From Branchiostoma floridae (lineage: Eukaryota > Chordata > Leptocardii > Amphioxiformes > Branchiostomatidae): DNA of 64,000 nucleotides. Position numbers and translations under genes: made by a program. Under the pieces are notes generated by a model. It worked only from the letters and a program-made list of their open reading frames with translations, had not been told where the DNA came from and searched no databases. Positions 1,119 to 55,119 of this stretch are shown here, piece after piece; positions within the stretch are counted from its first letter, which is position 1; each line of letters begins with the position of its first letter. The stretch is from assembly GCF_000003815.2 (NCBI RefSeq), contig NC_049983.1:23579639-23643638 (forward strand), in the 5' to 3' direction.

Positions 1119-1261
1119 CTACTGATCTGCTGCTCCAGCCGGGATGCCACAGGCCTGCAGAAGGGTTTGGTCAGATTTGAACCGGCCAGCAGCTTTCTCG
1201 ACCTCTGAGTCACTGTTCTTGAGGATGTCCACAATCTTGCTAGGCCAACTCCTTGCATCTC
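1119..1261 (-). CDS. Terminal exon: second copy of the glycosyltransferase C-terminal tail
   Basis: The acceptor follows CTCCTGCAG, and phase 1 matches the donor at 1547. The 47 encoded residues end in ACGIPAGAADQ and a TAG. They repeat the pattern that ends the preceding exon (W..KI...L, then LLKACGIT): here W.SKIVDIL and LLQACGIPAG. So the tail helices occur twice in tandem at the end of the protein. The other glycosyltransferase copy in this window (63.4 kb) carries the tail once, with the same ACGIPAGAAD ending. The function of the tail is unknown. Confidence 0.7.
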
Positions 1262-4200
1262 CTGCAGGAGTGGTGTCATCTCCATTCATCTTCAAGATGT
1301 CATGACGTCACACGTGCAGAAATCACATGTACTGCACTGTGAAGTCAGATCGCTGAAAATGACCGAGAGAATCGGTAAAAAATTCCAGTGAGTGAAATGA
1401 GTTGGAAAATTTTTATTTTGATGTTGTTCTCTGGACAAGATTAGAAAACACCACAGAGCGTAAATTGTAAAGTTCTCAAATATGTGCGTAAAAGTAATCG
1501 TTATGATAAAAAAACAAAATATCATGAAGCGTCAAAGAAAGATGTACCTGTGATACCGCAGGCTTTTAGGAGCTCTCTCTGGGAGTCCACCCAGTACTCG
1601 GACTTCAGAAGTGCATCTTTGAACTTTTTTGCATTGTTGAATGCCGTCTCAGGGTCAAGCAGAGTTTCCCTGATTTTGCCCGCCCAGGTTTGGGCATTTG
1701 CCTCCATATCACTGTCTCGCACGCTGGTCTTCACGATTCTGTTCAGGAGGCCCCTTGGGAACTTCTCTTCGTTAACGAACTTCGTGATCATGTCCGCCAG
1801 TCCTGACTGGTCAGAGATGAGAACAGGCACACCAGCGGCAATGGCCTCCAGGCCAACTAGCCCAAACGGCTCAGAGCGGGACGGCATCAGGACCAGGTGG
1901 GCCGACATCATGTCGTTCCTGATGTCCTGATGTGTTCCGTACGTTCGGAGGATGGGAATCAGGTCGCTGCTGTCCAGGTTGTCTTCCAGGATCTTCTTGC
2001 TTCTCTCATAGTCATCCTTGCTGCTGCCGCGGGTGACCCATCGCACGTTCTTCAGATCGCTTGCGGTCATGCTGATGGATCTTGCTGCAAGATTGTAACC
2101 TTTCAGATGCTCAACATTCGTCACTCTTCCAATTGAAAGGATGACCTTTACTCCATCACCATTATCAGGTGTGATGTTGGCTTCTTCAAATATCCTGGAC
2201 GGCCTTGGGAGGAACAAGAAGTGTTCTTTTGGTTTCTTCCCTATCCTGTACTTGTTCTTGAACTGGTTGTAGATCCGCGGGCCCACCGAGAAAGCTGCCT
2301 TTGCGTTGTTGACTTTATCAAGCATATTCTTCACTTTCTCAGAAGCTTCAGTAGCCTTCTGGGTTCCCTTGAAGTGATCAGTGTCCTCAGGTAAGGCGTG
2401 AGTGAACATGATCAGGTCTGCCTCCTCGTAGTACGCATCCTTGATGTTTCGCGCAGCTGTATCTGTGATGTGAGCATGGCCAATAATGACGTCAACATGT
2501 GGCGGGAACTTCGACTTCGGGTAGTAGGTCAGGTATTGAAACGTCAGCCAGTCCGTGGATGGCTCTGTCTTGTCCTCTAATGCTTGATGGGGTTTGATAA
2601 GCCGGATACCGTCATTGCCTGCTGCCTCTTGGTCTTCTTTCGTCACACGCAGGACTGTACAATAAACGACTGCCTTGAATGCGGCCAGAGTTTGTCCCAC
2701 CCTGCTGTTGATGGTAGAAAGTCCCCCCTTGGAGGTCCCATACTCGTCATTGATTAACAAGACTACTGGTACTTTGGAACCTTGGGAAAAGAGATAAAAA
2801 CAAAGACGGTATTAAATGATTAGCAAACTCGTTGTACACACCTGGTACATGTAGCTTGGAGACATTGCTAACTATAAAAAGAAATCTATCTACACCAGAA
2901 CATATGTGATATATGTAGTGACCGCTCTCTTATCTTTGTCAGGTAATAAATCTTACACTTACAAATAAATTACCGGTATCAAACACTCCAATGGTACCCA
3001 AAATCAGAGCTGCTGCCTGGCATGTCCATGTATCATATTGCTGCAATTCATCAAAATGAAATAAATGTTTCAAATATGTAAGCTTTTGCACGATGCTCAC
3101 AGTATTCTGCAGACAGTTATTTGCTGATTTAACTCTTTGCATGAAGGAAGATAGTAGTAGTCCACTGTGTCCTGCTGCTGCAGTGGTCTGGACACCTCAG
3201 TCTTTCTTCAACTCTTTCCACTTCGTCCTGTTCATTGCGAGCTTCCTGAGCTCCCTAAGTTTCCTTTCTGACCGTAATGAGTCCTCTTTCTTTGAGGTCT
3301 GCCCTTAGTAAGCCCAGAAGGTTCTTGCAGTGCCTTCCTTTTCGGGCTTTGTAGGTGTTGGAGCCAATCAAGGCAAATTCCAAGGAAGATACCTTTATGA
3401 TATATCAATCAAGTATTTATGTATTACCTTGACAGCTCAAGGAAGAATCAGCATTGCTTCCATGTGCAGCCCCAGTGCTGCCTCCATGTGCGGCCTCAGG
3501 GCTGCCTCCATCTGGAGCCCCAGGGCTGCCTCCATGTGCGGCCTCAGTGTTGCCTCCATGTGGAGCCTCAGGACTGCCTCCATGTGGAGCCTCAGTGCTG
3601 CCTCCATGTGGAGCCTCAGTGTTGCCTCCATGTGGAGCCTCAGTGTTGCCTCCATGTGGAGCCTCAGTGTTGCCTCCATGTGGAGCCTCAGTGCTGCCTC
3701 CATGTGGAGCCTCAGTGTTGCCTCCATGTGGAGCCTCAGTGCTGCCTCCATGTGGAGCCTCAGTGTTGCCTCCATGTGGAGCCTCAGTGTTGCCTCCATG
3801 TGGAGCCTCAGTGCTGCCTCCATGTGGAGCCTCAGTGCTGCCTCCATGTGGAGCCTCAGTGCTGCCTCCATGTGGAGCCTCAGTGCTGCCCCCATGTGGA
3901 GCCTCAGTGCTGCCTCCATGTGGAGCTTCTGTGCTGCCTCCATGTGGAGCCTCAGGGCTGCCTCCATTTGTCATGGCATTCTGTTGAGATGTCTGTAACG
4001 TTAGATGGCTGACTTGCCCCGCACCTCTGCTGGGTGGCACAGCTGCACCTGCAAGACAAAAATGTCAAAATGTCAAAATGCAAGATTACCTCTCAGACTG
4101 GTGGGTGATTCACTCAGCTATGCTGTGGAATGAAAAATGAATAATGGATTATCTTGTTTACTTCTTCCCACATGAATAAGTTCCAATCATGTTTTAATTG

Positions 4201-7200
4201 TTTTTCATGTGATGCTGCTTTGGCTCTCACGACATTCTTAGCAACTTTCTACTCATTAGTGAAGAGAACTTAGCACTTTTTGAATGCCAATGGGTACTCC
4301 CTGAGTTATATATGTCTGAAATGAATTGATGGTTATGCAATTAATAACAGCTGCTTTAACATGGTTATTTTTGTTCTGGTAACATTGATTTTGCCACAGT
4401 ATTCTTGATGTAAATCAGTCATAGGACTTCTTCAAGAACATAATTAAAAGCAGCGACAGCGTTTCAAGTTTTTTAAAAAAATCATTCCGATGAACCACAG
4501 AGCATCCCAGAATGCGCCCTAGGTTCACTCTAATTGTTACTGAAGTTTACTGAAGTCCCAGTGAAGCTCCAAAGATCTGCGACCGCAACGGTCAATTCGG
4601 AAATCTTGGACTGACTTACTTCCGGTAGGCAACCCGGAAGAAAGTGGATTTGGTTGCGGCTTACAACGGTATAAATGTGAAAAAATGACGCCGATGTGTT
4701 GAGAATAAGTTATAAATATCAATCTGACTGGAGGTTTTAAAGTTCAGAACATTTGATATTTTGGCGCCAAAAATCTTATAACCTAAAGTTTTCCCTTTAA
4801 CAAAATTCCCCGGAAATTATCTCATTTAAAAAGAAAATTAAAAGAATGTACACATGTACTCACAGGTTGGTATGTCTCCTTTCTGAAACAAGAAAAACAA
4901 ATAACGTGATTTTTGCATTTCTTCTGCAAGTTTAAGTTAGACCACTTTTTCCCAATGGTCCCAAAATCAGGGGCCAAACTTAAATCACTTACTCACTGCC
5001 CCAAGACCTATCTACTACGGTACCAAAAATCATGAACCTGGTACTTCCAGAAAATTTGACCTCCAGCTTTGACGCTCTAGGTAACTGGAAATCATATCTC
5101 GCGTACTGAACAAAGAAGCTTTACCAGTGTGCCTATAGCATGAAAGTAACTTGTAGGCAGAGTTAAATCTTACCTCATTGAATACATGCTGACACACAGT
5201 TTCGTCTTGTGGTGTCTTGATGGTAACTTTGCCATTGACACGTCTACCATTAGGCCTATTAAGCAACATTTGAACATTCTGGCCTTTTCTGGCACGGCAG
5301 AGAGTTGCTCGTAGGGTCATGTGCTCTATCTCTTCCTGGCCTCCATTGACAGCTACAGCAACAGCAATTTTCTCACCATGATAAAGGTCGAACATTGCAT
5401 CGTTGTGTCCACATCTGGTGAAGCCTTCGCGGTACTCATCCGTTTCTACGCTTGTGTCTCTGCAGACAACGTGGAATTCCACGTGATCTACGTCGGGATT
5501 GATGTACGATACAAACCGACAATTCAAAGTCATTGCCGACAGTGCATCTTGCATGACCTTTCTCACAGTAATAGATCTGGTCCAAAACACGAAAAGGGGA
5601 CAGAAGGTCAGCAGAAGTATGGACAGTTTGTCCAAATGTATCTGATGCATGGTTGAAGCTGTGATGTCTGCCCAGCCTTCTCCATCAAAATGCTTCAGCA
5701 GAACACATTGCATGTCTTCAGAACCAGGAGGTCGCCTCATCTGAAGTTCCATGGGTCCAACAGGCTGTGCACCATGTAGGTTGACGTGAACAGCCGGGGA
5801 GAACAGCACCTGATCCAGTAGCTCACGTGGACAGGTGTCCTCATCCAGGGACCAGGGATAGCCAGAGATCCAGCTGAAGCCTTCTTCACCCCTTAAGATA
5901 CCAGGAATGTCTACGATGGAGATGCTTACAGCTGTGTCTTGCTGAAGGATTCCTGGTGGCACAACAAGCTTGACAAAACCAGAAATCTCAATCTCCCCTC
6001 CTGTTGGTCCGACAAAGGCCTTTGTTGTCTTTGCATAGTGTAACTCATTGGGTACTCCTAAACAAATAAATTTCAAAGTATTGGTATTAATACGTGCTTG
6101 ATATGTGTTATTGGTAACACCTGACTGTCTTCCCAGTTCAGAACACATTATGAAAAGAAACATAACCTAAATGCAAGCAAAACAGAGCATCAAATTTTGG
6201 GATGGACGGCGGAATTTGAAGCTAAATTGTCCGCATGATTATAATATGCTTTATCTCAAATCTATTTTGTATCTTAGGACACGGAAGCTTAAATGATACC
6301 AAATGTATTGCTCTTGATTATGCATTAGTTTTCATGTGCTGACAAATGATGACATTGAAGATATAAGTCAGGATACACGTTTAAGGGAGTAAAAAGTAAT
6401 TGCATTGTTGCTTTGCTCATGCAGTTAATATACATCATATATACATAATATACATCTGTTGTAAGAATCTGATTTGAAACCTACCTGGAATGTCTCGCAC
6501 AACAGCAGTGAGGCTGATCCCGGCTGCCATCATGTCCTTCTCCAGCATTCTGAGGTTACCTAACATTTAAAATAAGCCTGATTTGGTAACATGGCAAAAT
6601 GCATAGAAATATGTCCATTGTGCAAATAAAAATTTAAAAAAAGAGAGAAAACTTCAATGATCAATCAGTAATGGTAAAAACTGTATGATGATATCAAGTC
6701 TACCCAAGGGCAGTATTCAGTCCCAAGTCTACCTTGATCATTGTGGTGAATATTTGTCACATGGAATTGCAAATTTGATTTTGAAAGTAAAGGTTTTTTG
6801 AAGAGAATGTAGGTCAATAATTTATGTAGCAAATGCAGCAATGGGTGTGGGAATGCAGTTAGTACTAACCGGTTGAGATGTGCCCACGCTTCATTGTCCT
6901 GATGATGTCATGTGGCGTCTCTGTTCCTGCAGTTTCCTTTTGCCCAGTACGCGCTGACCACACCCGCTGAAGTAGCCTTATATCTGTCTCGTCAAGCCGG
7001 CTGAGAATGCTTCCTAACATCTGCTGGAAATCTATGGGGATCACAAATGATATTTTTGGCATTACTGTCAGTTGAATACTTTGGGAAATTTTAAAACATA
7101 AAATACGTAATATAATAATTCTAGGAAGACTTAATAAGCTACTTTAGGAAGACTTAAGCTTTGCATCTTAAAACAACTGCTTGGTTTTGTCAACTCTACC

Positions 7201-49200: not shown

Positions 49201-49807
49201 ATGCTATCAGTGTCACAAAATGTTTTATGTGAATATCAGTGGCGTTGTGCCATGTCACATTCACTCAGATTAACCATGGGTCAGGCACAGTAAATCTCAT
49301 TTGGGTATGTCTGAAATAATTTCTGCTTTGTTTGTTGACATTAAATTTCTGCATAGAGATGCTCTCACTCTAAACCATATCATATCTTACAAATCTGCAG
49401 TTTCCTCTCAGAATTACATTTATTACACTGCTGAATATAGGCAGTTTGGCTCGAATTACTGTTTTTTTGTAACATGGTACATTGAAATTATAGTTTTTCA
49501 GCAGTTGACATATCATCAAGTCATCAATTGTCAACATTGAGAACAGTACGTATGCACTACAAAATATTGTGCAGATAAAAAAGCCAAAATAACTTGTTGC
49601 TGCTAGTTCATTACCATTCCATCAAAATGCTAATCACATTAATTAACATTGATGTATCAGAACTCCCACCTTTAGTTTGATCAATGAAAATCAGCATCCT
49701 TACCCAATCACTCTTGGTGTTGACATCCACCCCAGCCTCCAGTCCCCTCCTTACAGTCTGCACGTCACCTTTCTGCACAGCCCTGAAGAACGTGTCCAGG
49801 TCCATTA
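1119..49807 (-). CDS. Giant Ank - Roc-COR - Roc-COR - death fold - TIR - DED - ZU5/UPA - GT4 protein (35 exons)
   Basis: This is the overall model; the blocks below describe its parts. Exons were joined by reading GT/AG sites on the minus strand. Every junction has matching phase, and the coding sum from the ATG at 49803-49805 to the TAG at 1119-1121 is 8,904 nt, exactly 2,968 codons. Approximate residues: ankyrin repeats 1-384, Roc1 385-600, COR1 601-928, Roc2 929-1275 with a polar insert, COR2 1276-1653, death-fold-like 1673-1761, TIR 1762-1915, DED-like 1916-2002, ZU5/UPA 2002-2296, linker 2297-2510, GT4 2510-2920, tail to 2967. No signal peptide or membrane segment is evident, so a cytoplasmic immune sensor or scaffold is inferred. 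It resembles DAPK1 in its Ank-Roc-COR order but has no kinase. Alternative: two or three neighbouring genes that happen to keep phase. Upstream exons may add about 94 or more residues. Confidence 0.8.
1548..2780 (-). CDS. GT4-type glycosyltransferase domain (GT-B fold), C-terminal module
   Basis: A single 1,233-nt exon, phase 1 at both ends, encodes about 411 residues, the full length of a two-domain GT-B glycosyltransferase. The N-terminal half starts with a strand (VPVVLLI), followed by a glycine-rich loop SKGGLSTIN typical of the acceptor-side domain in GT4 enzymes. The C-terminal half starts near VKVILSIGRV and carries PSRSEPFGLVGLEAIAAG, which contains the E-x7-E signature that binds the nucleotide-sugar donor in this family. 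Both glutamates are present, so activity is plausible; donor and acceptor are unknown. Position: it follows the repeat linker and ends the protein. Similar domains are known fused to NACHT receptors in corals, so an immune role is inferred from architecture, not proven. No frameshifts are seen, unlike the copy at 63.4 kb. Confidence 0.88.
2781..3427. other. Intron with a relic LINE 3' end
   Basis: Intron between the linker exon and the glycosyltransferase exon. Minus-strand sequence around 3197-3290 reads KLRELRKLAMNRTKWKELKK then a stop, which resembles the extreme C-terminus of RTE/L1-like LINE polymerases. It is very short and 5' truncated. Nothing else is recognised in the intron. Confidence 0.4.
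3428..4048 (-). CDS. Linker exon made of 8-residue repeats
   Basis: A 621-nt exon, phase 1 in and out. The acceptor after TCTTGCAG and the donor CAAG|GTAATAC are both good. It encodes about 207 residues. After a short unique start (QVSHLTLQTSQQNAMTN) it is almost entirely the octapeptide GGSTEAPH (variants N for S, P for T), ending in a unique DSSLSCQG. The composition predicts an extended, flexible, O-glycosylatable tether between the ZU5/UPA module and the glycosyltransferase. Because the unit is 24 bp, copy-number change keeps the frame. Confidence 0.75.
3455..3975 (+). repeat. 24-bp minisatellite (about 21 copies), coding on the minus strand
   Basis: The plus-strand unit is CCTCCATGTGGAGCCTCAGT plus GCTG or GTTG, repeated with few differences; the low-coordinate end is more diverged. 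No stop occurs in several frames on both strands, which creates long spurious reading frames; only the minus-strand GGSTEAPH frame is joined to flanking exons in phase. Confidence 0.95.
4049..4863. other. Intron, no recognised content
   Basis: AT-rich intron between the linker exon and the 19-nt micro-exon. I see no coding, RNA or clear mobile element. A short CpG-containing stretch near 4545-4680 stands out in composition only. Confidence 0.5.
4864..4882 (-). CDS. 19-nt micro-exon
   Basis: The sequence is flanked by TTTCAG and GTGAGT. It enters in phase 0 after the ZU5/UPA exon and leaves in phase 1, exactly what the linker exon needs. It encodes KGDIPT plus one base. It is the only candidate found that repairs the phase difference between its neighbours, which supports it although it is tiny. 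Confidence 0.6.
5174..6057 (-). CDS. ZU5 plus UPA domains
   Basis: An 884-nt exon encoding about 295 residues. The start shows the ZU5 signature: VGPTGGEIEISGFVKLVVPP, i.e. the conserved GG-x-(I/L) strand followed by hydrophobic-PPG. The second half (from ITVRKVMQDAL to HGEKIAVAV) fits the UPA domain that follows ZU5 in PIDD, UNC5 and ankyrins. In those proteins ZU5-UPA packs against a death domain and can autoinhibit it or autoproteolyse. I do not see a clear HFS-type cleavage site, so autoproteolysis is not claimed. It lies between the DED-like exons and the repeat linker. ZU5 is secure; UPA is likely. Confidence 0.82.
6485..7031 (-). CDS. DED-like death-fold domain (two exons)
   Basis: Exons 6870-7031 and 6485-6559 (162 and 75 nt), joined in phase 1. 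The first encodes a helix with FQQMLGSILSRLDETDIRLL and later DIIRTMKRGHIST. The second continues GNLRMLEKDMMAAGIS. The spacing of hydrophobics and the motif 'G-x-I-x-x-x-N-L-x-x-L-x-x-x-(M/L)' near the C-terminus match helices 4-6 of death effector domains (FADD, caspase-8). DEDs form homotypic filaments upstream of caspases or related effectors. A CARD or DD is possible; the fold call is moderate and based on pattern only. Confidence 0.62.
7320..7341 (-). CDS. 22-nt micro-exon between TIR and DED-like exons
   Basis: The sequence is flanked by GTTTTTCAG and GTGAGT. It reads IMTDEEK plus one base, entering in phase 0 after the TIR exon and leaving in phase 1 for the DED-like exon. It supplies the phase change needed, as the 19-nt micro-exon does further downstream. 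Confidence 0.6.
7342..7678. repeat. Intron with a dispersed repeat (solo terminal-repeat type)
   Basis: The intron carries a repeat that also occurs near 29580-29720, 58325-58515 and 60900-60930. Shared words are CTTCTACCAACACAGATGAA and a following CTTTCAAGTT. Because the 60.9-kb copy abuts the Penelope-like element, these may be solo terminal repeats of that class. The orientation at 58.3 kb is opposite. Confidence 0.5.
7679..8139 (-). CDS. TIR domain
   Basis: A 461-nt exon encoding about 154 residues. The order fits TIR: a first strand ELSVILHTDDYTEEF, box-2-like region, then MVALVISPQTLHHRHW and NLDYEFPVRNDKLLLPILLY. The glutamate of DYEF sits where NAD+-cleaving TIRs such as SARM1 keep their catalytic Glu, so enzymatic activity is possible but untested. 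Odd point: a short internal duplication, SESGVSCHTENIKPD then SESGISCDTENIQPT, lies in the loop after the first helix. TIRs mediate homotypic signalling or NAD+ hydrolysis. The acceptor (TTCTATTTCAG) and donor (AAG|GTAGTT) are good. Confidence 0.82.
8437..8703 (-). CDS. Death-fold-like segment (CARD-like?)
   Basis: A 267-nt exon, phase 1 on both sides, encoding about 89 residues. It is helical in pattern: IGPVLDTMELGRRLSLDQCD, then DRVNNLVKLVQ, then FADCFLRE. The 'qC-x-x-I/R-x(n)-D-R-V-x-x-L-v-x-x-(L/V)' arrangement recalls CARD helices 2-4. It sits immediately before TIR, as death-fold domains often do. I cannot assign the subfamily; other helical folds remain possible. Confidence 0.45.
8850..10390 (-). 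mobile_element. 5'-truncated non-LTR retrotransposon with restriction-like endonuclease (dead)
   Basis: Lies in an intron, same strand as the host gene. Three overlapping frames (10112-10390, 9666-10091, 9115-9702) together give the C-terminal part of a LINE polymerase. It shows a C-x-x-C zinc-knuckle region (DRCKLCGNRET, then H..L..C) followed by KPDLVIYLPEQKTLHIHELT, which carries the PD-(D/E)xK-like core of RLE-type LINEs such as the R2/NeSL groups. The frames are split by indels near 9670-9700 and 10100, and there is a stop. The reverse-transcriptase core is missing. The 3' end near 8930-8960 has GGACATA repeats. Confidence 0.7.
10564..10622 (-). CDS. Short linker exon after COR2
   Basis: A 59-nt exon, phase 2 in and phase 1 out, both matching its neighbours. 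It encodes VPSEFRKVWMTGISQAHRT. No domain is recognised. It joins COR2 to the death-fold-like exon across the intron that holds the RLE-type LINE. Confidence 0.65.
10923..12055 (-). CDS. COR domain 2 (with the end of Roc2)
   Basis: A 1,133-nt exon encoding about 378 residues. The beginning (EEIRSHIEGKAAGKLVMPKI) fits the last Roc helix and strand. The COR hallmark is clear: LTFLHDRGDIIFFDEP, then LRDDVTLQPQVMIDAFKTII, i.e. 'L-x-x-x-G-x-I-x-(Y/F)-F' followed by 'L-x-P-x-(W/V)-(L/M)-x-x-x-F-x-x-(I/V)-I'. The second COR half continues to CVRRFGLEESRVFAG. In ROCO proteins COR dimerises and couples GTP state to output. Donor GG|GTAAGG, phase 2. Confidence 0.85.
12335..12438 (-). CDS. Roc2 G4 exon
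   Basis: A 104-nt exon encoding a helix and the strand PPIIIALTHKDMVSK. THKD is the G4 guanine-specificity motif ([N/T]KxD type). Phase 1 in, phase 0 out; both match. Confidence 0.8.
12700..13263 (-). CDS. Roc2 G3 exon with long polar repeat insert
   Basis: A 564-nt exon, phase 1 in and out, 188 residues. The second half carries G3: SFWDFGGQATYYGTHHCFI, followed by VYILVMSLLQK. The first half, inserted between the P-loop exon and G3, is a low-complexity acidic/polar stretch. It includes three near-perfect tandem 13-mers (EEHQDQTEPELQS, 39-bp unit at about 13110-13240) and degenerate continuations. Such a long insertion between G1 and G3 is unusual for a Roc domain and may be an extended switch-I-side loop. 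Confidence 0.8.
13264..14048. other. Intron, no recognised content
   Basis: AT-rich intron of the Roc2 region. The phrase CAAATTGTCC recurs three times near 13935-14000. No coding or RNA gene is seen. Confidence 0.5.
14049..14114 (-). CDS. Short polar exon in the Roc2 insert
   Basis: A 66-nt exon, phase 1 in and out, flanked by TTTTGGCAG and GTTAGT. It encodes EDKHENLQSQQETKEAP and a little more, glutamine/glutamate-rich like the following exon. It is therefore part of the same disordered insert between Roc2 G1 and G3. Confidence 0.65.
14230..14450. repeat. Dispersed element with inverted ACTAGT-containing ends
   Basis: The stretch carries CTAGTTTGGACTAGTCCAGG on one side and TTGTCCAGACTAGTTGAAAA on the other, which are imperfect inverted copies. 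It is probably a short non-autonomous element in the intron. The boundaries are not defined. Confidence 0.35.
14650..15780. repeat. Intronic tandem repeat rich in ATGCAAAT octamer palindromes
   Basis: About three diverged copies of a unit of roughly 240-270 bp. Each includes CAGCTACATATGTAACA-like sequence, 'CATGGAATGCAGTGGATTTAT' variants, and an inverted pair TTAATTATGCAAATTA / TAATTTGCATAATTA. The block ends in a GACAGACAGAC-like run near 15740. It is noncoding. Confidence 0.7.
15835..15885 (-). CDS. Short linker exon
   Basis: A 51-nt exon, phase 1 in and out, encoding EEIDELAGPLLRTETST. It follows the Roc2 P-loop exon (donor CCAG|GTTTGG) and is flanked by CACTCTGTAG and GTGAAA. No domain is recognised; it begins the polar insert. 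Confidence 0.65.
16023..16277 (-). CDS. Roc2 P-loop (G1) exon
   Basis: A 255-nt exon, phase 1 in and out. After a helical start (DVPIEILLRGPEMARLYSKA) it reads RVPVVGQYRSGKSCFIKRLM. GQYRSGKS is a Walker A / G1 motif (G-x4-G-K-S). The next part, EEPITDGIHI, contains the conserved T of switch I with the T-x-G-I pattern typical of Roc domains. The exon is in phase with the end of COR1, which argues that both Roc-COR units belong to one protein. Confidence 0.82.
16810..17325 (+). mobile_element. tRNA-derived SINE (copy 1)
   Basis: The head has an RNA polymerase III A-box-like TGGCGCAGCGGCAGCG and a degraded B box. The body GGGAAAGGCACTTAACGTGG, GAAAATGAGTA, GTTAAAGAACCCACCACACG-like is shared with four other copies in this window. 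It ends in a GAT/ATG simple repeat (to about 17325). It lies antisense in the intron between COR1 and the Roc2 P-loop exon. Confidence 0.8.
17364..18162 (-). CDS. COR domain 1, main exon
   Basis: A 799-nt exon, phase 0 in and phase 1 out, 266 residues. It starts LLFISPGTCDPILVLKPSWL, the COR 'L-x-P-x-W-L' signature, followed by a winged-helix-like region (REELQRVFQDVADVDLVITL) and then the second COR half (FFSRVQTHLMREL, later QGDKGQCGKMLQQLENVV). Order and length resemble the COR part of DAPK1-like ROCO proteins. GTP-dependent dimerisation is the family role. Confidence 0.82.
18640..18700. repeat. Perfect 23-bp inverted repeat (hairpin)
   Basis: Arms 18640-18662 and 18678-18700 (AGCTCCCGAGTCTCTTCTCT... 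and its exact complement) are separated by a 15-nt loop. It lies in a COR1 intron. It could be a MITE end or a transcribed hairpin; no function is assigned. Confidence 0.85.
18720..19500. mobile_element. Possible non-autonomous element with inverted ends
   Basis: Sequence near 18755-18810 (CCTCCGTCAAAAACAG with an upstream AATAGAAC) is found inverted near 19425-19470 (CTGTTTTGACGGAGGTGTTC with AATAGAAC). The interior is noncoding and locally more CpG-rich than its surroundings. The ends and target duplication were not resolved. Confidence 0.4.
19628..20268 (-). CDS. Roc1 C-terminus and start of COR1 (two exons)
   Basis: Exons 20105-20268 (164 nt) and 19628-19813 (186 nt). The first encodes the strand/helix region after G4: QRRAAHILHIMQARFKDHLC, then MDCRRTRTPEMDQL, where the short aspartate/cysteine strand is in the G5 position. 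The second encodes MRWPEYLEEVRKLDKLLTVD, a typical Roc-to-COR transition ('P-x-x-W ... W-x-x-(F/Y)'). Donors are GTGAGT and GTACAG. Phases 1-0 and 0-0 match. Confidence 0.75.
20333..21106. mobile_element. About 770-bp element with 13-bp terminal inverted repeats and internal tandem copies
   Basis: The left end ATATTTCAGCCAT (20333-20345) and right end ATGGCTGAAATAT (21094-21106) are exact inverse complements. The interior has about three diverged copies of a roughly 180-bp unit containing CAAAATTAAGCATTTTGTTGT. The noncoding interior suggests a MITE. It sits in an intron of Roc1. Confidence 0.65.
21364..22298 (-). CDS. Roc1 GTPase core (three exons)
   Basis: Exons 22155-22298 (144 nt), 21810-22049 (240 nt) and 21364-21463 (100 nt). 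G1: FKVFIGGNETTGKSTLKQSL, a P-loop G-x4-GKS/T. Switch I: PTPGVDIGTF with the conserved T and G-x-D/E-I. G3: SVWDFAGQSEYAVTH, followed by VFIVLYNITD. G4: PDVILVASHADQ, with SHAD in place of [N/T]KxD. Roc domains with TH/SH-x-D are known (LRRK2 has THLD), so nucleotide binding is plausible. The phases 0-0, 0-0 and 0-1 join cleanly. This first Roc follows the ankyrin repeats directly, as in DAPK1. Confidence 0.85.
22470..22700 (-). mobile_element. Relic Penelope-like fragment
   Basis: The stretch resembles the region at 59.97-60.19 kb: TTTTCAGCGACCACTGTTGC / TTCTTCAGGA, then CACCGTCTCTGTTCAATG, then ATGACCTCCTTTCTACC and TACAAAGTAGTCCTGTTCAG. It is diverged and short, and lies in the intron between the last ankyrin half-exon and the Roc1 P-loop exon. 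Confidence 0.5.
22776..22832 (-). CDS. Half ankyrin repeat linking to Roc1
   Basis: A 57-nt exon, phase 0 in and out. It reads EGKTPLNYTQDSKTRLHLK, the first half of an ankyrin unit (G-x-TPL) that breaks off into the basic linker before the Roc1 P-loop exon. Confidence 0.7.
22866..24014 (+). CDS. LINE ORF1: PHD-finger plus nucleic-acid-binding protein
   Basis: Open for about 382 codons; no ATG lies near the 5' end, so the true start is uncertain. It contains a PHD/RING-like zinc finger, CERCQKWMCAPCMKM with a later H and WYCSTCEP. A coiled region EYIEREKRRKNLVVFNVPED begins the RRM/ORF1-like domain that CR1-group ORF1 proteins carry. It ends 60 bp before the next ORF. Confidence 0.75.
   Translation: MLLRSAHTLCRKCADRRHFPSNNTEPVTCTEPKDAIGSSANSIHVSSSHRKVNNAAHPAHDDELGSNVSGECHDKRHSENEQIECERCQKWMCAPCMKMPKAMLNALIKHRSLHWYCSTCEPLAVEGARSGAETENGFDEPTIASIAQKTATAIAACIESKLQNFPPTSSSNDTQGQGQKQSYADVARNLSRFTGTINKIVAGTTTPQSSSLNPQEPREVVQLVDEYIEREKRRKNLVVFNVPEDLKDSTGSTLSDTKVFTDITKEEFNLVPKVQAAYRLGRRNPEKPRPLLIKIDNDDTLSRALILRRAKDLRNSTRWCRVYIVPDMTPKEREVDKKLRQELKSRREAGEANLVIRRGRIVCTQTTGESQPPDGNNDQSQA
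24075..26766 (+). pseudogene. LINE ORF2: AP endonuclease and reverse transcriptase, broken
   Basis: The endonuclease start MYTNIDQLPNKRDDL and the motif HLVIAGDFNYPEIDW are clear. The RT motifs SPGPDGLHPKILAEV, SSGIPQGSVLGPILFVIFIN and FADDTKVFRRV are present. Breaks: a frameshift near 24730-24750; an internal deletion at about 25755 that removes the RT segment between GRSCM and WIQAFL, including the usual first catalytic-aspartate block; and a 4-bp insertion near 25993 that shifts frame again. The C-terminal thumb and tail (26014-26766) are otherwise open. It cannot be autonomous. Confidence 0.85.
27088..27365 (+). mobile_element. tRNA-derived SINE (copy 2)
   Basis: The head TGGGTAGCGTAATCGGAAGT and a good B box CGGGTTCGATTCC (about 27126) are followed by the shared body (GGGAAAGTCACGACC, GATGAAAATGAGAACCTAGC, GATAGGACGTTAAA, GTGTGCAACGGTGCAAACC). 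It is diverged and lies directly downstream of the CR1-like element. Confidence 0.75.
27494..29387 (-). CDS. Ankyrin exons of the 'PLHxAA' type (four exons)
   Basis: Exons 29289-29387, 28770-28871, 28392-28490 and 27494-27592, each phase 0-0 and each one repeat (33, 34, 33 and 33 residues). Examples: TPLHKAAAGGHTGTCELLI, TPLHEAAARGHTGTCELLI. Each acceptor is CTGTACAG or similar and each donor GTGATT, GTGATA, GTGAAA or GTATTA. They are closer to one another than to the SLHVAS-type exons upstream, so the array expanded in two phases. Ankyrin repeats bind protein partners; the ligand is unknown. Confidence 0.82.
27680..28140. repeat. Dispersed repeat, paralogous to 55.24-55.93 kb
   Basis: Shared words include CCCATAGACTTCTA, TTTACATGGTCGC, GAAATGTCAGCAGATTTT, CTTTCACCAATCTAAC, GGGAATTTCTCACCGCTAAA and CATGCAGCCGTTT. 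This copy lacks the MITE that interrupts the other one. Confidence 0.7.
29135..29229 (-). pseudogene. Decayed ankyrin exon
   Basis: The sequence reads SSPLHLAAAGRHTERLFCSG, clearly a 'PLHxAA' repeat, but three residues of the central helix are deleted and no GT donor is found at the expected end. An acceptor ATGTAG is still present. I left it out of the gene model. Confidence 0.6.
29388..30892. other. Large intron between the two ankyrin exon classes
   Basis: Holds the dispersed repeat with CTTCTACCAACACAGATGAA near 29688-29717, the LINE relic at 30.1-30.6 kb, and otherwise AT-rich sequence with no coding signal. Confidence 0.5.
30120..30570 (-). mobile_element. 3' end of a non-LTR retrotransposon
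   Basis: Minus strand gives CKYCSGKAVEDELHFICQCS then HYISERNKLF, the usual C-terminal zinc-knuckle region of LINE polymerases (C-x-x-C...E-x-x-H-F-x-x-x-C). A stop interrupts it shortly afterwards. The 3' end at 30120-30135 is AATAAAGGTTATTATTATTA (minus strand), a tail typical of such elements. Confidence 0.65.
30790..32836. repeat. Tandem units containing ankyrin exons (low-coordinate block)
   Basis: Units of roughly 0.9-1.0 kb share both the exon and the intron (for example GCAAACGTGGACTGAAATGA, GGTAGATGGCAGAGAGTACT, GAAGCATGCAGCAGAGGTT). The same units occur at 46.51-48.96 kb. One unit near 31.72-32.06 kb is shortened. The block is interrupted at 32836 by the composite insertion. Confidence 0.9.
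30893..32254 (-). CDS. Ankyrin exons of the 'SLHVAS' type, low-coordinate group (three exons)
   Basis: Exons 32156-32254, 31766-31864 and 30893-30991, each 99 nt, phase 0-0. Each encodes a single repeat of the form QTSLHVAS....QTEVAELLIKNGA then (D/N)LEARxx. Donors are GTAAGT in all three. Small differences (R for G at position 13, KK for KN) show mild divergence. Together with the three copies at 46.8-48.9 kb they form one recently amplified series. Confidence 0.85.
32862..33880. repeat. Hairpin-rich arrays (AAAAGCGCTTTT and GGATATCC words)
   Basis: Repeated near-perfect palindromes built on TATCC(T/C)AAAAGCGCTT with complement, interleaved with GGATATCCAGAA and GCGCATTCTGGATATCC, in both orientations. 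A more complex stretch (about 33050-33540) lies between two such arrays. Similar arrays recur at 34.50-34.65 and 46.38-46.51 kb, so these are probably terminal modules of one element family. Confidence 0.8.
33832..34660 (+). repeat. Deletion derivative of the element at 43.71-46.51 kb
   Basis: 33832-34380 matches 43710-44270 in direct orientation (for example CGATAGAATACAACCTGGGA, TGCAGCTGGACGTTTTCA). 34395-34650 then matches 46190-46510 (AATCACCATGATTGACGGCG, GAAGCGCGTCTGGGATATCC). The 1.9 kb between these parts in the longer copy is missing here. Confidence 0.8.
35093..36340. other. Interior of the 9-kb element, no gene
   Basis: AT-rich sequence without coding signal. About three tandem copies of a roughly 31-bp word (CTCCTGAATTTACCGTTAAG and following bases) lie at about 35800-35887. 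Confidence 0.5.
36350..37064 (+). mobile_element. 5'-truncated non-LTR retrotransposon, 3' end
   Basis: The frame TSPVLPNHHVQEQF is overtaken by the frame YSTRLWNSLPREVKEATSYN and then LRLGWCQLNSTLARFNI and RSCACGATSETVAHFLLHCP. The last is the C-terminal C-x-C-G...E-x-x-x-H-x-L-x-x-C-P motif of LINE polymerases. It stops at TAG (36906-36908). The 3' end is CAATAAATAAAATAAAG. The final 90 bp resemble the tail of the SINE at 51.5 kb. Confidence 0.75.
37065..38830. other. No gene; contains the assembly gap
   Basis: AT-rich sequence without supported coding exons. Ambiguous bases occupy 38119-38231 (113 nt, probably a gap of estimated size). Open frames that cross the gap are artefacts. Confidence 0.6.
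39029..39096. repeat. 19-bp inverted repeat pair (MITE-end type)
   Basis: AACCTCTGCTTGGAGAGTA (39029-39047) and its exact complement (39078-39096) enclose 30 bp. The same end word recurs near 39255 and in the fold-back element at 39754-39953, so several copies of one MITE family lie side by side. Confidence 0.8.
39754..39953. mobile_element. 200-bp fold-back MITE
   Basis: Starts TACTCTCCAAGCAGAGGTTA and ends with the imperfect complement; the inner part GTCATTTTTATTGAGCTTTC is mirrored as GAAAGCCCAATAAAAATGAC. Almost the whole element can fold back on itself. Confidence 0.75.
40000..41340. other. No gene recognised
   Basis: Interior of the 9-kb element between the fold-back MITE and the MULE-like element. 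I see no convincing exon, RNA gene or repeat structure here. Confidence 0.5.
41343..42660. mobile_element. 1,298-bp MULE-like element with exact 10-bp target duplication
   Basis: CTCAGGTTGC occurs at 41343-41352 and 42651-42660. Between them the element begins GGGTTGGCGGAAACGGCTGC and ends with the complement ending CCGCCAACCC; the inverted repeats extend about 80 bp (to about 41430 and from about 42570). A 9-11-bp target duplication with long inverted repeats fits Mutator-like elements. No transposase is present. The interior includes an exon-like piece (41605-41744). Confidence 0.8.
41605..41744 (-). other. Exon-like fragment inside the MULE-like element
   Basis: Minus strand shows a strong acceptor TTCTTGTTTCAG followed by an open 140-nt stretch (YRYKTSVGDNIFEINKIKAL, then YGEDTRLVIDLINVNELAST) and a GT. 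The amphipathic, non-repetitive composition looks like real protein. It may be a host exon captured by the element. I do not recognise the gene. Confidence 0.4.
43705..46508 (+). mobile_element. Longer member of the hairpin-ended element family
   Basis: The first 560 bp match 33832-34380 and the last 320 bp match 34395-34650. The middle (44.28-46.19 kb) is unique in this window and contains a minus-strand two-exon coding fragment. It ends at the junction with the ankyrin-array unit. Confidence 0.65.
45022..45745 (-). CDS. Unidentified two-exon coding fragment within mobile DNA
   Basis: The upper exon (45637 to about 45745) encodes LRDVQHSGAFTEDQANLVDK and CVIEEVDIPLQYEM, with a strong donor ATG|GTAAGACG. 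The lower exon (45022-45144) follows TTTTGGCTACAG in the same phase 0 and encodes RLECGVMVVLPEALATSSTK, then CLQEARDCVRKAGVRD and a TAG. The upper exon's acceptor is weak, so more exons may lie upstream or be lost. I do not recognise the family. It lies on the same strand as the giant gene but ends in a stop, so it is not one of its constitutive exons. Confidence 0.45.
46509..48960. repeat. Tandem units containing ankyrin exons (high-coordinate block)
   Basis: Three units with about 1.0-kb period (exon starts 46796, 47800, 48787). They carry the same intronic words as 30.79-32.84 kb. Similarity is high across introns as well as exons, which points to recent unequal crossing-over rather than selection on the exon alone. 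Confidence 0.9.
46796..48885 (-). CDS. Ankyrin exons of the 'SLHVAS' type, high-coordinate group (three exons)
   Basis: Exons 48787-48885, 47800-47898 and 46796-46894, each 99 nt and one 33-residue repeat, phase 0-0, with GTAAGT donors and TCTATCCAG-type acceptors. Encoded variation sits at the surface positions typical of ligand contact: GNQ, LDQ or RNQ at the start, SWNG, SECG or SKYG in the loop, and ARDW, AWDE or ARDL at the end. The core is nearly constant. Confidence 0.85.
48961..49703. other. Intron 3' of the first ankyrin exon
   Basis: AT-rich; I see no coding or mobile element here. Confidence 0.5.
49704..49807 (-). CDS. First ankyrin exon with possible start codon
   Basis: A 104-nt exon: acceptor TTGCCCACAG, then TA and ATG. 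It encodes MDLDTFFRAVQKGDVQTVRR, then GLEAGVDVNTKSDW, a typical capping ankyrin repeat. The ATG (49803-49805) could be the start, but phase 1 at the acceptor also fits the exon at 50.5 kb, which would make it internal. Donor GTAAGG. Confidence 0.75.
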
Positions 49808-51565: not shown

Positions 51566-51639
51566 GGCTAATCACAGTATAGGGGGCTTTTACCTGATAA
51601 AACTTCCAAATATGCTAGCTAGAAAATTAACGTTTTGAC

Positions 51640-52367: not shown

Positions 52368-53819
52368 CATTGAATACAGCCAGCACATAAAGCACTCAGA
52401 GTCACGCTTTTTAAGTTGGATCCCATGATTCCCATCCATCCATTCCAGAAGACACACTTGACTCCTGTCATTGTCAACTTGATTCCTGTCATTGTCCATC
52501 TTGATGACATTGCAGTCTTCCATGAAGATTTTGATGTTCCAGCGGAATGATTGGTGAGAGGTGACAGGTGATGCCACACTCCCCATGGAGCGGTACTGGG
52601 TAGGTGAGAGGAGAGGTGACAGGTGATGCCACACTCCCCATGGAGCGGTACTGGGTAGGTGAGAGGAGAGGTGACAGGTGATGCCACACTCCCCGTGGAG
52701 CGGTACTGGGCAGGTGAGAGGAGAGGTGACAGGTGATGCCACACTCCCCGTGGAACGGTAGGTGAGAGGAGAGGTGACAGGTGATGCCACACTCCCCATG
52801 GAGCGGTACTGGGTAGGTGAGAGGAGAGGTGACAGGTGATGCCACACTCCCCGTGGAACGGTAGGTGAGAGGAGAGGTGACAGGTGATGCCACACTCCCC
52901 ATGGAGCGGTACTGGGTAGGTGAGAGGAGAGGTGACAGGTGATGCCACACTCCCCGTGGAACGGTAGGTGAGAGGAGAGGTGACAGGTGATGCCACACTC
53001 CCCGTGGAACGGTAGGTGAGAGGAGAGGTGACAGGTGATGCCACACTCCCCATGGAGCGGTACTGGGTAGGTGAGAGGAGAGGTGACAGGTGATGCCACA
53101 CTCCCCGTGGAACGGTAGGTGAGAGGAGAGGTGACAGGTGATGCCACACTCCCCATGGAGCGGTACTGGGTAGGTGAGAGGAGAGGTGACAGGTGATGCC
53201 ACACTCCCCGTGGAACGGTAGGTGAGAGGAGAGGTGACAGGTGATGCCACACTCCCCATGGAGCGGTACTGGGTAGGTGAGAGGAGAGGTGACAGGTGAT
53301 GCCACACTCCCCGTGGAACGGTAGGTGAGAGGAGAGGTGACAGGTGATGCCACACTCCCCATGGAGCGGTACTGGGTAGGTGAGAGGAGAGGTGACAGGT
53401 GATGCCACACTCCCCGTGGAACAGTAGGTGAGAGGAGAGGTGACAGGTGATGCCACACTCCCCATGGAGCGGTACTGGGTAGGTGAGAGGAGAGGTGACA
53501 GGTGATGCCACACTCCCCATGGAGCGGTACTGGGTAGGTGAGAGGAGAGGTGACAGGTGATGCCACACTCCCCGTGGAGCGGTACTGGGTAGGTGAGAGG
53601 AGAGGTGACAGGTGATGCCACACTCCCCGTGGAGCGGTACTGGGCAGGTGAGAGGAGAGGTGACAGGTGATGCCACACTCCCCGTGGAGCCTGTGTTCCT
53701 CTGCACTACTGAAGTCCTGGTCATTGAAGTCCTGGTCGTCTGTAGTGGGCTCTGTGTCCTCCATCTTGGGTCGTGTGAGCTTCACAAACACACACTGGAG
53801 GTAGACAGATCCAGTTGTG
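52368..53819 (-). CDS. Candidate upstream exon carrying a minisatellite; frame interrupted
   Basis: The high-coordinate end has a strong acceptor (CTTCACTCTTCTGCAG) and reads TTGSVYLQCVFVKLTRPKME, then DTEPTTDDQDFNDQDFSSAE. The low-coordinate end reads SFRWNIKIFMEDCNVIKMDN, later VCLLEWMDGNHGIQLKKRDS and CFMCWLYSM, with a strong donor GTAAGTG in phase 0. Between them lies the 55/48-bp minisatellite, which is open in all three minus frames. The two unique ends are in different frames in this assembly. Either copy number or assembly error broke the frame, or translation starts inside the array (an in-frame ATG lies at 52584-52586), or a splice removes part of it. No domain is recognised. Confidence 0.5.
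52552..53692. repeat. 55/48-bp minisatellite, about 21 units
   Basis: The unit begins GGTGAGAGGAGAGGTGACAG and ends GGAGCGGTACTGGGTA (55 bp) or, in the short variant, GGAACGGTA (48 bp). Long and short units largely alternate in the middle, giving a higher-order period of about 103 bp. On the minus strand each long unit contains CACCTACCCAG, a good splice-acceptor-like word. Confidence 0.95.
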
Positions 53820-55072
53820 CTGCAGAAGAGTGAAGGACCATCAAGGTAGATTTTGTACTGTCATCTATACTGGGATCAACTTAGGAAGGAATATCAAACC
53901 CTATAGGTTCAAGTCAAATTTTGTTTGGCCATCTATATTGGGCTCAGAGTGTGACACTTACTCACTCACTTACACATCAAAATAACACAGCATGGAAGAC
54001 ACTTTGCTCTGCGTCCTCCATGTTGGGTTGTGTTATGTCTAATAACTTCCCACACATTAACAGTGGTGCAAAACAGGGAAAGGAAAAAATGAATCTTAAG
54101 TAGAGAGATTTAGACACTCAGGTCACCATGGCCAGAAGCTTGATAGGTGTAATATACATAATATATTGAACAAACTCCACGTGTGCCAAGTGCGCGGCAC
54201 AGTCAAAAATTTGAAAACTGGATTCAGACGTTGGAATTGCTATTTTTGGTTTGAGGACACCAAATTTTGTCAACTTCTGGTGCAATCCACATTGAAATGT
54301 GTATTTTCTCCAGTAGGTATGACATACATTGCACAATGTAGATATTAAAATACAAAACGGTGTATTATAAAAATTTATATTCCGCATCGCCCTCAGTCCC
54401 AGCCCACCTGCAGGTCGGAGCGCCCTCCGGCCTCCTACCCGTGGTCAGGCTGGTAACTCGGAAGATACAGAATACACCGTGTTGTAATCTTACACAAACC
54501 GACTGACGGAGGCCACCTGTATCATCGAGACAACTGTTTACAAGTCAGGACCTTCACCTTTGAGTTTGACCTGTGCATGAGCACTTGGACCCATGAATGA
54601 GCTTATAAAATAAAAGCCCTTTCACAGAGATCAGAATGCACGTGCGGCAGGGCTCGAAACCCAAAATTGGAGCTGTGTACCCAGTTTTTTCTGCGGGTGC
54701 ACATAATCTCTATCCCATCAAAATCTGCAAGCAAAAAATTCCAAATCCGCATCTCTAAGAGATTTGACTGCAAACAAATTACATAAAAGTACAGCCACAA
54801 TTTTGACTAATCTTGGTGACATTTATCAGTTAAGAACTGGTATTTTTGGGGTGAAAAAGTCAGAAGGAGAAAACTTTATCTTTGCCCCCCCACCCACGTA
54901 TAAACAAACTGACATGCCTAAAAGTAAAAACTAATTATAAGATACATAAGTTCCATACACTGTCATGCCAGTTTCATAACTATGGGTAGCCTTAACATAC
55001 GTTTCATTATCCCATCGGAAATTAACGACAACTTCAAACAGAACGGAATAATAAACTTCTGAATCAACATAC
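53820..55072. other. Intron, no recognised gene
   Basis: AT-rich, with a more GC-rich patch at 54380-54500. No supported exon or repeat structure. Confidence 0.5.
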
Positions 55073-55119
55073 CTGAAGTTTGTAAACTTTCCGTCTGGAA
55101 TAACCTCTGACCTTTCAGA
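55073..55119 (-). CDS. Candidate further upstream exon
   Basis: A 47-nt stretch between GAGTGGTACAG and GTATGT, phase 0 in and phase 2 out. It reads SERSEVIPDGKFTNF plus two bases. The phase fits the TTGSVYL frame of the next exon. Short and without domain, so tentative. Confidence 0.4.

What the first reader, a model, noticed from the sequence alone, without database searches (positions are those of the whole stretch)
1119..55119. One giant immune-type gene: ankyrin - two Roc-COR switches - death fold - TIR - DED - ZU5/UPA - glycosyltransferase
Seen: 35 minus-strand exons with GT/AG borders whose phases agree at every junction and whose lengths sum to a multiple of three (8,904 nt from the ankyrin ATG to the TAG). 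Known: each module is separately used in metazoan immunity or cell-death signalling; DAPK1 links Ank-Roc-COR to a death domain. Inference: the combination, with two GTPase modules, TIR, DED and an enzymatic GT4 end in one chain, is an architecture I do not know as a described protein.
Basis: partly seen in the sequence, partly recalled or inferred. Interest (0 to 1): 0.92.

Follow-up and report, generated by a model that had tools for sequence, protein, structure and literature searches.

The report
Lancelet double-Roco glycosyltransferase giant gene
This stretch of a lancelet chromosome most likely holds one very large gene that joins sensor repeats, two GTPase switches, cell-death adaptor domains and a sugar-transferring enzyme; it sits in a tandem family of related genes, some of which share a predicted self-cutting site that could release the enzyme.

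Summary
The gene is real in outline. I rebuilt 32 minus-strand coding exons (8,730 nt, 2,909 aa, no stop, 31 of 31 introns GT-AG, phases agreeing), not 35 exons and 8,904 nt. Pfam confirms ankyrin, Roc twice, COR-A of COR2 and GT4 (PF20706, E 6e-76). COR1 falls just under cut-off; DED, ZU5 and TIR are sub-threshold; the "death fold" is CARD-like.

One gene or two? A gap-free sibling (A2) has its own ankyrin start and can be read as ankyrin-CARD-CARD-Roc2-COR2-CARD-TIR-DED-ZU5-UPA-GT4; others run ankyrin-Roc1-COR1-GT4. A conserved 5' region precedes 6 of 7 ankyrin starts in the joined stretch, with no copy inside the window gene. Among listed matches this double Roc occurs only here. No transcript was seen.

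A new variant of known kinds: Roco, GT4 effector, ZU5-UPA. New here: 10 of 10 ZU5-UPA exons read have Phe-Ser or Phe-Cys (window TF|C) where PIDD, NLRP1 and CARD8 self-cleave (PMC3210808). I propose an NLRP1-like protein releasing UPA-GT4. Main rival: two adjacent genes.

The parts
   Evidence: blastn finds 5 other copies in the C5 array, each 4-9 kb upstream of an ankyrin start exon; none inside the gene. Transcription not tested.
49704..49805 (-). start exon, ATG at 49805, first ankyrin-type repeat (MDLDTFFRAVQKGDVQ...)
   Evidence: 47 matches in the genome
46796..48885 (-). ankyrin exons 2-4 (48787-48885, 47800-47898, 46796-46894), one repeat per 99-nt exon, phase 0-0
38119..38231 (.). 113-base N run inside the intron between ankyrin exons 4 and 5
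27494..32254 (-). ankyrin exons 5-11 (32156-32254, 31766-31864, 30893-30991, 29289-29387, 28770-28871, 28392-28490, 27494-27592)
20105..22298 (-). Roc1 GTPase, 4 exons (22155-22298 P-loop GGNETTGKST; 21810-22049 WDFAGQ; 21364-21463 SHAD; 20105-20268)
   Evidence: Pfam Roc 1.7e-11
17364..19813 (-). COR1, 2 exons (19628-19813, 17364-18162), phase-1 donor at 17363
   Evidence: Pfam COR-A 34.5 bits (cut-off 35.3), COR-B 20.8 (cut-off 27); donor context shared by eye with siblings B, D and A2
12335..16277 (-). Roc2 GTPase, 3 exons (16023-16277 P-loop GQYRSGKS; 12700-13263 WDFGGQ with 39-nt acidic repeats; 12335-12438 THKD)
   Evidence: Pfam Roc 1e-9; phase-1 acceptor also in A2, G and C17
10923..12055 (-). 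COR2
   Evidence: Pfam COR-A 4.6e-14; 41 matches in the genome
10564..10622 (-). 59-nt exon, phase 2-1
   Evidence: exon and flanks conserved with A2
8437..8703 (-). CARD-like death-fold exon
   Evidence: no Pfam hit; E 2e-6 two-sequence BLASTP to a Pfam CARD exon of sibling A2
7679..8139 (-). TIR-like exon
   Evidence: 17 matches in the genome, 16 of them 0.8-2.8 kb 3' of a COR2 match; sub-threshold TIR hits in 3 of 5 further paralogues; two best PDB profile hits are 7uwg (Tir) and 8g83 (AbTIR), E 0.12 and 0.2
7320..7341 (-). 22-nt micro-exon
   Evidence: conserved in A2
6485..7031 (-). DED-like, 2 exons (6870-7031, 6485-6559)
   Evidence: Pfam DED E 0.0025, 18.4 bits against cut-off 35.9
5174..6057 (-). 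ZU5-UPA-like exon; TF|C motif, Cys codon 5600-5602 (F2095|C2096)
   Evidence: Pfam ZU5 E 0.074; F then S or C in 10 of 10 exons read, window included
4864..4882 (-). 19-nt micro-exon
   Evidence: 19-nt counterpart at the same place in A2
3428..4048 (-). linker exon with 24-nt coding minisatellite (EAPHGGS)n
   Evidence: TRF 21.4 copies; similar linker follows COR1 directly in siblings B, D and E (by eye)
1548..2780 (-). GT4 glycosyltransferase exon, EX7E motif intact
   Evidence: PF20706 6e-76, 256.3 bits; 103 matches, fragments included, in the genome
1119..1261 (-). terminal exon and TAG

Best explanation
It is one lancelet gene of the Roco class, in a tandem family on contig C5, encoding a cytosolic immune-type protein. 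Ankyrin repeats (one per exon) sense or dock; two Roc-COR modules act as GTP-dependent dimerisation switches; CARD-like, TIR-like and DED-like domains recruit partners; a ZU5-UPA module cuts itself at TF|C, as PIDD, NLRP1 and CARD8 do at HF/S or SF/S, leaving the two halves bound; the C-terminal half is UPA-linker-GT4. On activation the N-terminal half lets go, UPA oligomerises, and the GT4 enzyme adds sugar to an invader or host target. The gene was built by phase-1 exon shuffling: the Roc2-to-UPA block is a 1-1 phase cassette sitting in the COR1-linker intron of a simpler Ank-Roc-COR-linker-GT4 gene. Shown: exons, frames, Pfam domains, paralogue orders, constraint, motif conservation. Inferred: single transcript, self-cleavage, activation, enzyme activity, immune role. 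The confidence given is for one gene built this way; the release mechanism by itself is rated in the section on the most novel reading.
For: Open 32-exon chain. Exons ahead of Roc2 vary but join in phase 1: COR1 here, CARD-CARD in A2, TPR in C17. A2 reads from ankyrin start to GT4 with no N. Ankyrin start followed by COR2 without a COR1 match between at three other places: A2, H, C6:472083. 5' region copies upstream of 6 of 7 ankyrin starts in the joined stretch, none between COR1 and Roc2. COR1 and linker in one open frame followed by GT4 in E. TIR exon near COR2 in 16 of 17 places. dN/dS 0.13-0.47 in 12 comparisons. F-[SC] in 10 of 10. Lancelet exon shuffling is biased to 1-1 phase (PMC4284660, passages). 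GT4 as effector with STAND NTPases, and with AP-GTPase-COR in bacteria (PMC8195603 section 15).
Against: No transcript or protein data. The order start-COR1-COR2 without another start or GT4 between was listed at this locus only (lists are lower bounds). At G, Roc2-to-GT4 has no listed ankyrin start after F's GT4, so the block can sit without one. A1 and C end in a stop in the COR1 exon after CARD-like repeats. The N run lies inside the gene. TIR, DED, ZU5 are below Pfam cut-offs; the PDB profile search found no ZU5 structure. The TIR catalytic Glu position appears to be Asp or Gly (role recalled). PF20706 rings over its cut-off in 14 of 14 control prokaryotes, so the name alone does not prove a conflict role. 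The GT4 tree puts the window with C231, in neither sibling type. My DP gene finder also merged a neighbouring GT4 fragment, so its single-gene output is not evidence.
Confidence: 0.55

Rival explanations
1. Two neighbouring genes: Ank-Roc1-COR1 (ending in a read-through of the COR1 donor to TAA 17230, or in another exon) and a separate Roc2-COR2-CARD-TIR-DED-ZU5-UPA-linker-GT4 gene with its own start in the 1.1-kb interval.
For: Both halves exist apart: COR1 without COR2 after 11 of 12 ankyrin starts on C6, and COR2 matches on C17 and C18, where no COR1 match was listed. Double Roc listed only here. Lancelet models suffer false fusions (PMC4967905). Two poly(A)-like hexamers lie in the interval, and six short phase-1 ATG-to-donor candidates with donor scores 4.1-6.2, against 7.6 for the COR1 donor.
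Against: No conserved start, stop or 5' region was found in the interval. The read-through tail after the COR1 donor differs from that of siblings B and D. The COR1 donor is of the sibling type that leads to a further exon. A2 can be read with the Roc2 block inside an ankyrin-start gene.
Confidence: 0.3
2. A type I gene Ank-Roc1-COR1-linker-GT4 with a Roc2-to-UPA unit nested in its COR1-linker intron; the main product skips the nested unit. (Not exclusive of the best explanation: both forms could be made.)
For: COR1 donor and linker exon resemble type I siblings B, D, E; a COR1-to-linker skip is in frame, phase 1 to 1.
Against: Roc2 acceptor, two micro-exons and most block exons are conserved, and those compared are constrained; no own start or stop was found for the block.
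Confidence: 0.12
3. Assembly artefact or private recombinant: two sibling genes joined by a mis-assembly or a recent deletion.
For: Tandem array with a near-identical stretch (89% over 521 columns including introns), an N run inside the gene, a reverse-transcriptase-like stretch between COR2 and CARD that A2 lacks, and reported presence-absence variation of lancelet genes with death and TIR domains (PMC12373286, passages).
Against: No N in the COR1-Roc2 interval; no stop or frameshift in 32 exons.
Confidence: 0.1

Closest known systems
Bacterial AP-GTPase (Roc)-COR conflict proteins with GT4 effector (PMC8195603, section 15)
   Same: repeat sensor, Roc-COR GTPase switch, C-terminal GT4 in the effector place
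   Different: bacterial N-terminus is LRR; here ankyrin, two Roc-COR units, and CARD/TIR/DED/ZU5-UPA modules between switch and GT4
Metazoan GT4 expansions (coral NACHT/NB-ARC + glycosyl transferase group 1, PMC4083563; GT4-TRADD-N in cnidarians, cephalochordates, hemichordates and over 500 GT4 paralogues in Acropora, PMC8195603)
   Same: GT4 in lineage-specific immune-type expansions
   Different: switch is Roc-COR, not NACHT/NB-ARC; GT4 is last, after UPA; no TRADD-N hit appeared
NLRP1 / CARD8 / PIDD (ZU5-UPA autoproteolysis, PMC3210808; UPA oligomerisation, PMC7794386)
   Same: ZU5-UPA-like module with F-[SC] at the place of HF/S or SF/S; effector C-terminal of UPA
   Different: nucleophile Cys in the window; effector is an enzyme, not CARD or death domain; no NACHT or LRR hit
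Other animal Roco proteins with immune-type domains (Aplysia ROC-COR with TIR or in MyD88-like proteins, PMC9334734; Trichoplax ROCOs with TPR, CARD, death domains, told in PMC11378527)
   Same: Roc-COR joined to TIR, CARD, TPR or death-type domains
   Different: no glycosyltransferase was mentioned in the passages I saw ('glycosyl' has 0 occurrences in PMC9334734)
DAPK1
   Different: no kinase found; GT4, TIR-like, DED-like and ZU5-UPA-like modules present
Brown-algal ROCO candidate immune receptors (PMC11378527)
   Same: Roc-COR behind repeats encoded one per exon
   Different: LRR exons of 72 bp in phase 2 there, ankyrin in phase 0 here; only LRR-ROC-COR there

Membership tests
Roco proteins | Roc domain directly followed by COR | tested here: met
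   Roc 44.8 and 39.1 bits (cut-off 27); COR-A of COR2 53 bits (cut-off 35.3), COR-A of COR1 34.5 bits, just under cut-off. The Roc profile also rings in 8 of 14 control prokaryotes
Roco proteins | G1, G3, G4 nucleotide-binding motifs | tested here: met
   Roc1 GGNETTGKST, WDFAGQ, SHAD; Roc2 GQYRSGKS, WDFGGQ, THKD in the translation; motif definitions recalled
GT4-conflict (PF20706) | match above the curated cut-off | tested here: met
   256.3 bits against 26, profile 1-384 of 385; but 14 of 14 control prokaryotes also pass the cut-off, so the cut-off is not specific
GT4-conflict (PF20706) | EX7E catalytic motif | tested here: met
   E303 and E311 (exon numbering) invariant in 8 of 8 aligned rows, window included; role of the motif recalled
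ZU5-UPA / FIIND | ZU5 profile match | tested here: inconclusive
   E 0.074, 13.8 bits against 21; no ZU5 hit in the PDB
ZU5-UPA / FIIND | HF/S or SF/S-type cleavage motif | tested here: met
   F then S (5) or C (5) in 10 of 10 fragments; window TF|C, so Cys not Ser; residue before F is T in 8, S in 1, R in 1
ZU5-UPA / FIIND | actual self-cleavage | not testable with these tools
   needs expression
TIR | profile match | tested here: inconclusive
   0 of 2 close copies and 3 of 5 further copies hit TIR models, none above cut-off; AbTIR E 0.2
DED | profile match | tested here: inconclusive
   18.4 bits against 35.9, E 0.0025
CARD | profile match | tested here: not met
   no Pfam hit for the window exon or its A2 copy; likeness rests only
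DAPK | protein kinase domain | tested here: not met
   no kinase family among Pfam hits of 4 pieces that cover all but the linker and last exon
NLR (NLRP1 type) | NACHT or NB-ARC ATPase | tested here: not met
   no such hit
Bacterial AP-GTPase-GT4 system | N-terminal LRR | tested here: not met
   ankyrin repeats instead

The most novel reading that the evidence does not exclude
A chordate self-cleaving sensor whose released fragment is a UPA-armed glycosyltransferase: an NLRP1-style trigger wired to a bacterial-type GT4 effector and gated by two Roc-COR GTPases. It would be an animal immune system in which ZU5-UPA autoproteolysis deploys an enzyme, with Ser and Cys nucleophiles interchanging among paralogues, and a family in which one phase-1 intron has been the socket for swapping sensors and switches.
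Probability: 0.3. Interest if true: 0.85.

Novelty: new variant of a known kind. Interest (0 to 1): 0.62.

Why it matters
If right, it gives an animal counterpart to the bacterial AP-GTPase-COR-GT4 conflict proteins, ties Roco GTPases (the class of LRRK2 and DAPK1) to enzyme-based immunity, and offers a self-cleavage release step that can be tested with one point mutant. It also shows, in one tandem array, how a chordate may build immune-type genes by swapping phase-1 cassettes.

Tried and rejected
My Viterbi gene finder over-predicted tiny exons and, with a weak new-gene cost, merged a neighbouring GT4 fragment with the gene; I kept only exons backed by homology, Pfam or sibling conservation. 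A 30-nt exon (2842-2871) was dropped: the matching siblings' DNA shows no splice signals there (by eye). The short ankyrin repeat 29143-29226 was dropped for want of a donor. A repeat shared by the COR1-Roc2 interval and many places on C5 looked at first like a conserved gene part; its spread fits a dispersed repeat, perhaps a tRNA-derived SINE (label recalled), so I draw nothing from it. The GT4 tree did not tell which sibling type gave the window its GT4. The closest GT4 copy, on C231, shows in the 1.5 kb upstream only a 128-nt likeness at the GT4 start, and no linker or UPA match. A genome-contig scan for prokaryotic relatives of the GT4 gave 62 pattern hits and 0 confirmed; a second scan was not used. 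PDB profile search with ZU5-UPA gave only chance-level hits, 3 at E 1.3-1.8; with two TIR rows, none. A search for papers with 'GT4-conflict' found 0. In the listings I saw none that describes an animal Roc-COR-GT4 protein; figures and source data of PMC8195603 were not seen and may list some. PMC2575513 (amphioxus TIR and NACHT combinations; passages) holds no 'Roc', 'ZU5' or 'glycos' terms.
Full report
WHERE IT IS. The window is contig C5:23579639-23643638 of a 513,431,437-base genome in 431 contigs. Size and content fit the Florida lancelet Branchiostoma floridae; that name is my inference, the handles bear none. 'Joined' coordinates below are window coordinates continued into the next 200 kb of C5 (7,762 N in that 200 kb).

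THE CHAIN. From the minus strand I assembled 32 coding exons, ATG at 49805 to TAG at 1119: 8,730 nt, 2,909 aa, no internal stop, GT and AG at 31 of 31 introns, phases agreeing at every junction. At 20 junctions free phases would agree with chance (1/3)^20, 3e-10; splice sites were partly chosen with the frame in view, so this overstates the case. Ankyrin exons are 99-102 nt, phase 0-0, one repeat each; most junctions 3' of COR1 are phase 1.

DOMAINS. Pfam: ankyrin 6.5e-90; Roc1 1.7e-11; COR1 COR-A 2.2e-8 (34.5 bits, cut-off 35.3) and COR-B 3.5e-4 (below cut-off); Roc2 1e-9; COR2 COR-A 4.6e-14; GT4 PF20706 'GT4-conflict' 6e-76. Below cut-off: DED 0.0025 and ZU5 0.074 (the A2 copy had no ZU5 hit). 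The window TIR exon and its A2 copy hit no TIR model; of five further copies, 36-63% identical, three hit TIR or TIR_2 at 0.0088, 0.0016 and 0.057 and two did not. With a 7-row profile the two best PDB hits were 'Molecular chaperone Tir' (7uwg, E 0.12) and 'NAD(+) hydrolase AbTIR' (8g83, E 0.2); with three IL1RAPL chains (TIR proteins, recalled) 5 of 13 hits are TIR, the other 8 are unrelated, and all 13 lie above E 0.1. In that alignment the residue four after the conserved Trp is Asp or Gly in our rows where the bacterial enzyme has Glu; that this Glu is catalytic is recalled, so a non-enzymatic TIR is a lead only. The 'death fold' exon matched no Pfam family but aligns to a Pfam CARD exon of sibling A2, 26% over 42 aa, E 2e-6 for that single comparison. 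Controls: Roc rings in 8 of 14 control prokaryotes, over cut-off in 5; PF20706 rings over its cut-off in 14 of 14, so its name alone does not prove a conflict role.

THE FAMILY. The GT4 exon has 103 matches in this genome, fragments included (100 of 109 candidates scored); PF20706 as a profile gives 57 (57 of 102 candidates scored). COR2 has 41 matches, COR1 60, the ZU5-UPA exon 13, the TIR exon 17, the ankyrin start exon 47. The tool calls such counts lower bounds. TIR lies 0.8-2.8 kb 3' of a COR2 match on the same strand in 16 of 17 places; the exception, on C4, is 24 kb away.

ORDER ON C5 (23.58-24.04 Mb; S = ankyrin start, 11 in this stretch). Window: S-COR1-COR2-TIR-ZU5-GT4. A1: S-COR1, then two CARD-like repeats (by eye) and a stop in the same open frame. 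A2: S-CARD-CARD-COR2-TIR-ZU5-GT4. B, D, E, F: S-COR1-GT4; B's COR1 and GT4 match in broken pieces, so B may be damaged. C: S-COR1 with CARD-like repeats and stop. S 23834273: no COR found before the next S. G: COR2-TIR-ZU5-GT4 with no S listed after F's GT4. H: S-COR2-TIR-GT4. S 23991839: COR1. On C6, of 12 S, 11 lead to COR1 and one (472083) to COR2-TIR-ZU5 with no GT4 match. So S leads to COR2 without COR1 at three other places, S-COR1-COR2 was listed only in the window, and G shows the block without a recognisable start.

ONE GENE OR TWO. For one gene: (i) the exon before Roc2 varies but joins in phase 1: COR1 in the window; a CARD-CARD exon in A2 whose donor shares, by eye, flanking intron sequence with that of D's COR1; a TPR exon in C17. 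For G no upstream exon was identified. (ii) A2, with no N from start to GT4, gives a single open model from its ankyrin start to a GT4 stop, 2,320 or 2,393 aa by penalty. Homology hits were fed to that finder, and the A2 ankyrin-to-CARD acceptor is weak (score about 1), so this shows the chain is possible, not that it is made. (iii) The window's 55001-55257 region has copies 4-9 kb upstream of five of the other six ankyrin starts of the joined stretch (A1 has none at E 1e-3) and none inside the window gene. (iv) The window-A2 alignment keeps exons and the 22-nt micro-exon, and the 19-nt micro-exon has a 19-nt counterpart. (v) dN/dS is 0.13-0.47 in 12 comparisons over Roc1b, COR1b, Roc2a, COR2, CARD-like, TIR, ZU5-UPA and GT4; a 13th, DED, was not computed. 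Against: no RNA, a junction seen once, the N run between ankyrin exons 4 and 5, two poly(A)-like hexamers and six short start candidates in the COR1-Roc2 interval, and the published warning that lancelet domain fusions are often prediction errors (PMC4967905: abstract and section 12 read).

ORIGIN. In B and D the COR1 exon is followed by a linker exon and GT4; in E, COR1, an acidic tail and the same GGSPEAPHGGS repeat are one open frame, then GT4. The window's linker resembles this type, and its COR1 donor matches B and D. So the Roc2-to-UPA block lies inside what is elsewhere the COR1-linker intron, and it is symmetrical, phase 1 to 1. Lancelet exon shuffling is reported to favour 1-1 phase, with transposase and retrotranscriptase fragments enriched at translocations (PMC4284660, passages). 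The GT4 tree does not settle which sibling supplied the GT4 (window with C231, 100/100).

HOW IT WOULD WORK. Roco proteins are proposed to cycle between monomer and dimer with nucleotide state (PMC6337361, passages). UPA promotes oligomerisation of NLRP1 and CARD8 C-terminal fragments (PMC7794386, abstract). CARD8 and NLRP1 cut themselves at SF/S and PIDD at HF/S; Ser, Thr or Cys can start such reactions (PMC3210808, abstract and passages). In the ZU5-UPA exons I read (window, A2, G, C6, two on C19, C8, C172, C17, C9) the residue before the site is Phe in 10 of 10 and the next is Ser in 5 and Cys in 5; of the 13 ZU5-UPA matches, three partial ones (two pieces on C3, one on C9) were not read. 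In the window the cut would fall between F2095 and C2096, freeing an 814-aa UPA-linker-GT4 piece. PMC8195603 (sections 14-16 read, passages elsewhere) proposes GT4 as an immune effector, describes bacterial AP-GTPase-COR proteins with GT4, and predicts ZU5/FIIND autoproteolysis for TRADD-N proteins. My step beyond it is the combination in one lancelet gene and the conserved F-[SC] site. Activity, trigger and target are inference.

NOVELTY. The parts, bacterial Roc-COR with GT4, and animal Roc-COR with TIR, CARD, TPR or death domains (PMC9334734 passages; PMC11378527 passages) are in print. The full chain, an animal Roc-COR-GT4 family and the UPA-GT4 release idea I did not see in the listings; most of those papers I saw only as listings. 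New variant of a known kind.

Noticed in passing
window 22851-26766 (+): Long ORFs that look like a non-LTR retrotransposon (endonuclease and reverse-transcriptase-like), inside the intron between ankyrin exon 11 and Roc1 (label by eye).
   Followed up: no
window 9115-10411 (-): Reverse-transcriptase-like ORFs in the COR2-CARD intron, absent at the matching place of sibling A2 (label by eye).
   Followed up: partly
window 52490-53705 (-): A 48/55-nt minisatellite open in all three minus-strand frames (ORFs of 430-498 aa) with an ATG ahead of it, between the conserved 5' region and the ankyrin start.
   Followed up: no
joined C5 64007-65224 and window 63386-63851 (-): A GT4 copy without a listed Roc or COR nearby, followed 3' by a partial second copy; several other GT4 loci also carry partial copies just 3'.
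   Followed up: no
window 46550-48903 and 30710-32835: Tandem units of about 1 kb, each with one ankyrin exon, with related copies near 31-33 kb; recent local exon duplication.
   Followed up: partly
window 29143-29226 (-): Short ankyrin-like repeat without a donor, yet similar repeats are present in siblings A2 and B.
   Followed up: partly
L042 3839-5665: C17: a 609-aa open stretch of TPR repeats ahead of Roc2 with a phase-1 donor.
   Followed up: partly
L041 about 287-560: SH2-like ORF 6-7 kb upstream of Roc2 at locus G (by eye).
   Followed up: no
window 60024-60752 (-): ORF resembling the GIY-YIG end of a Penelope-like element (label recalled).
   Followed up: no
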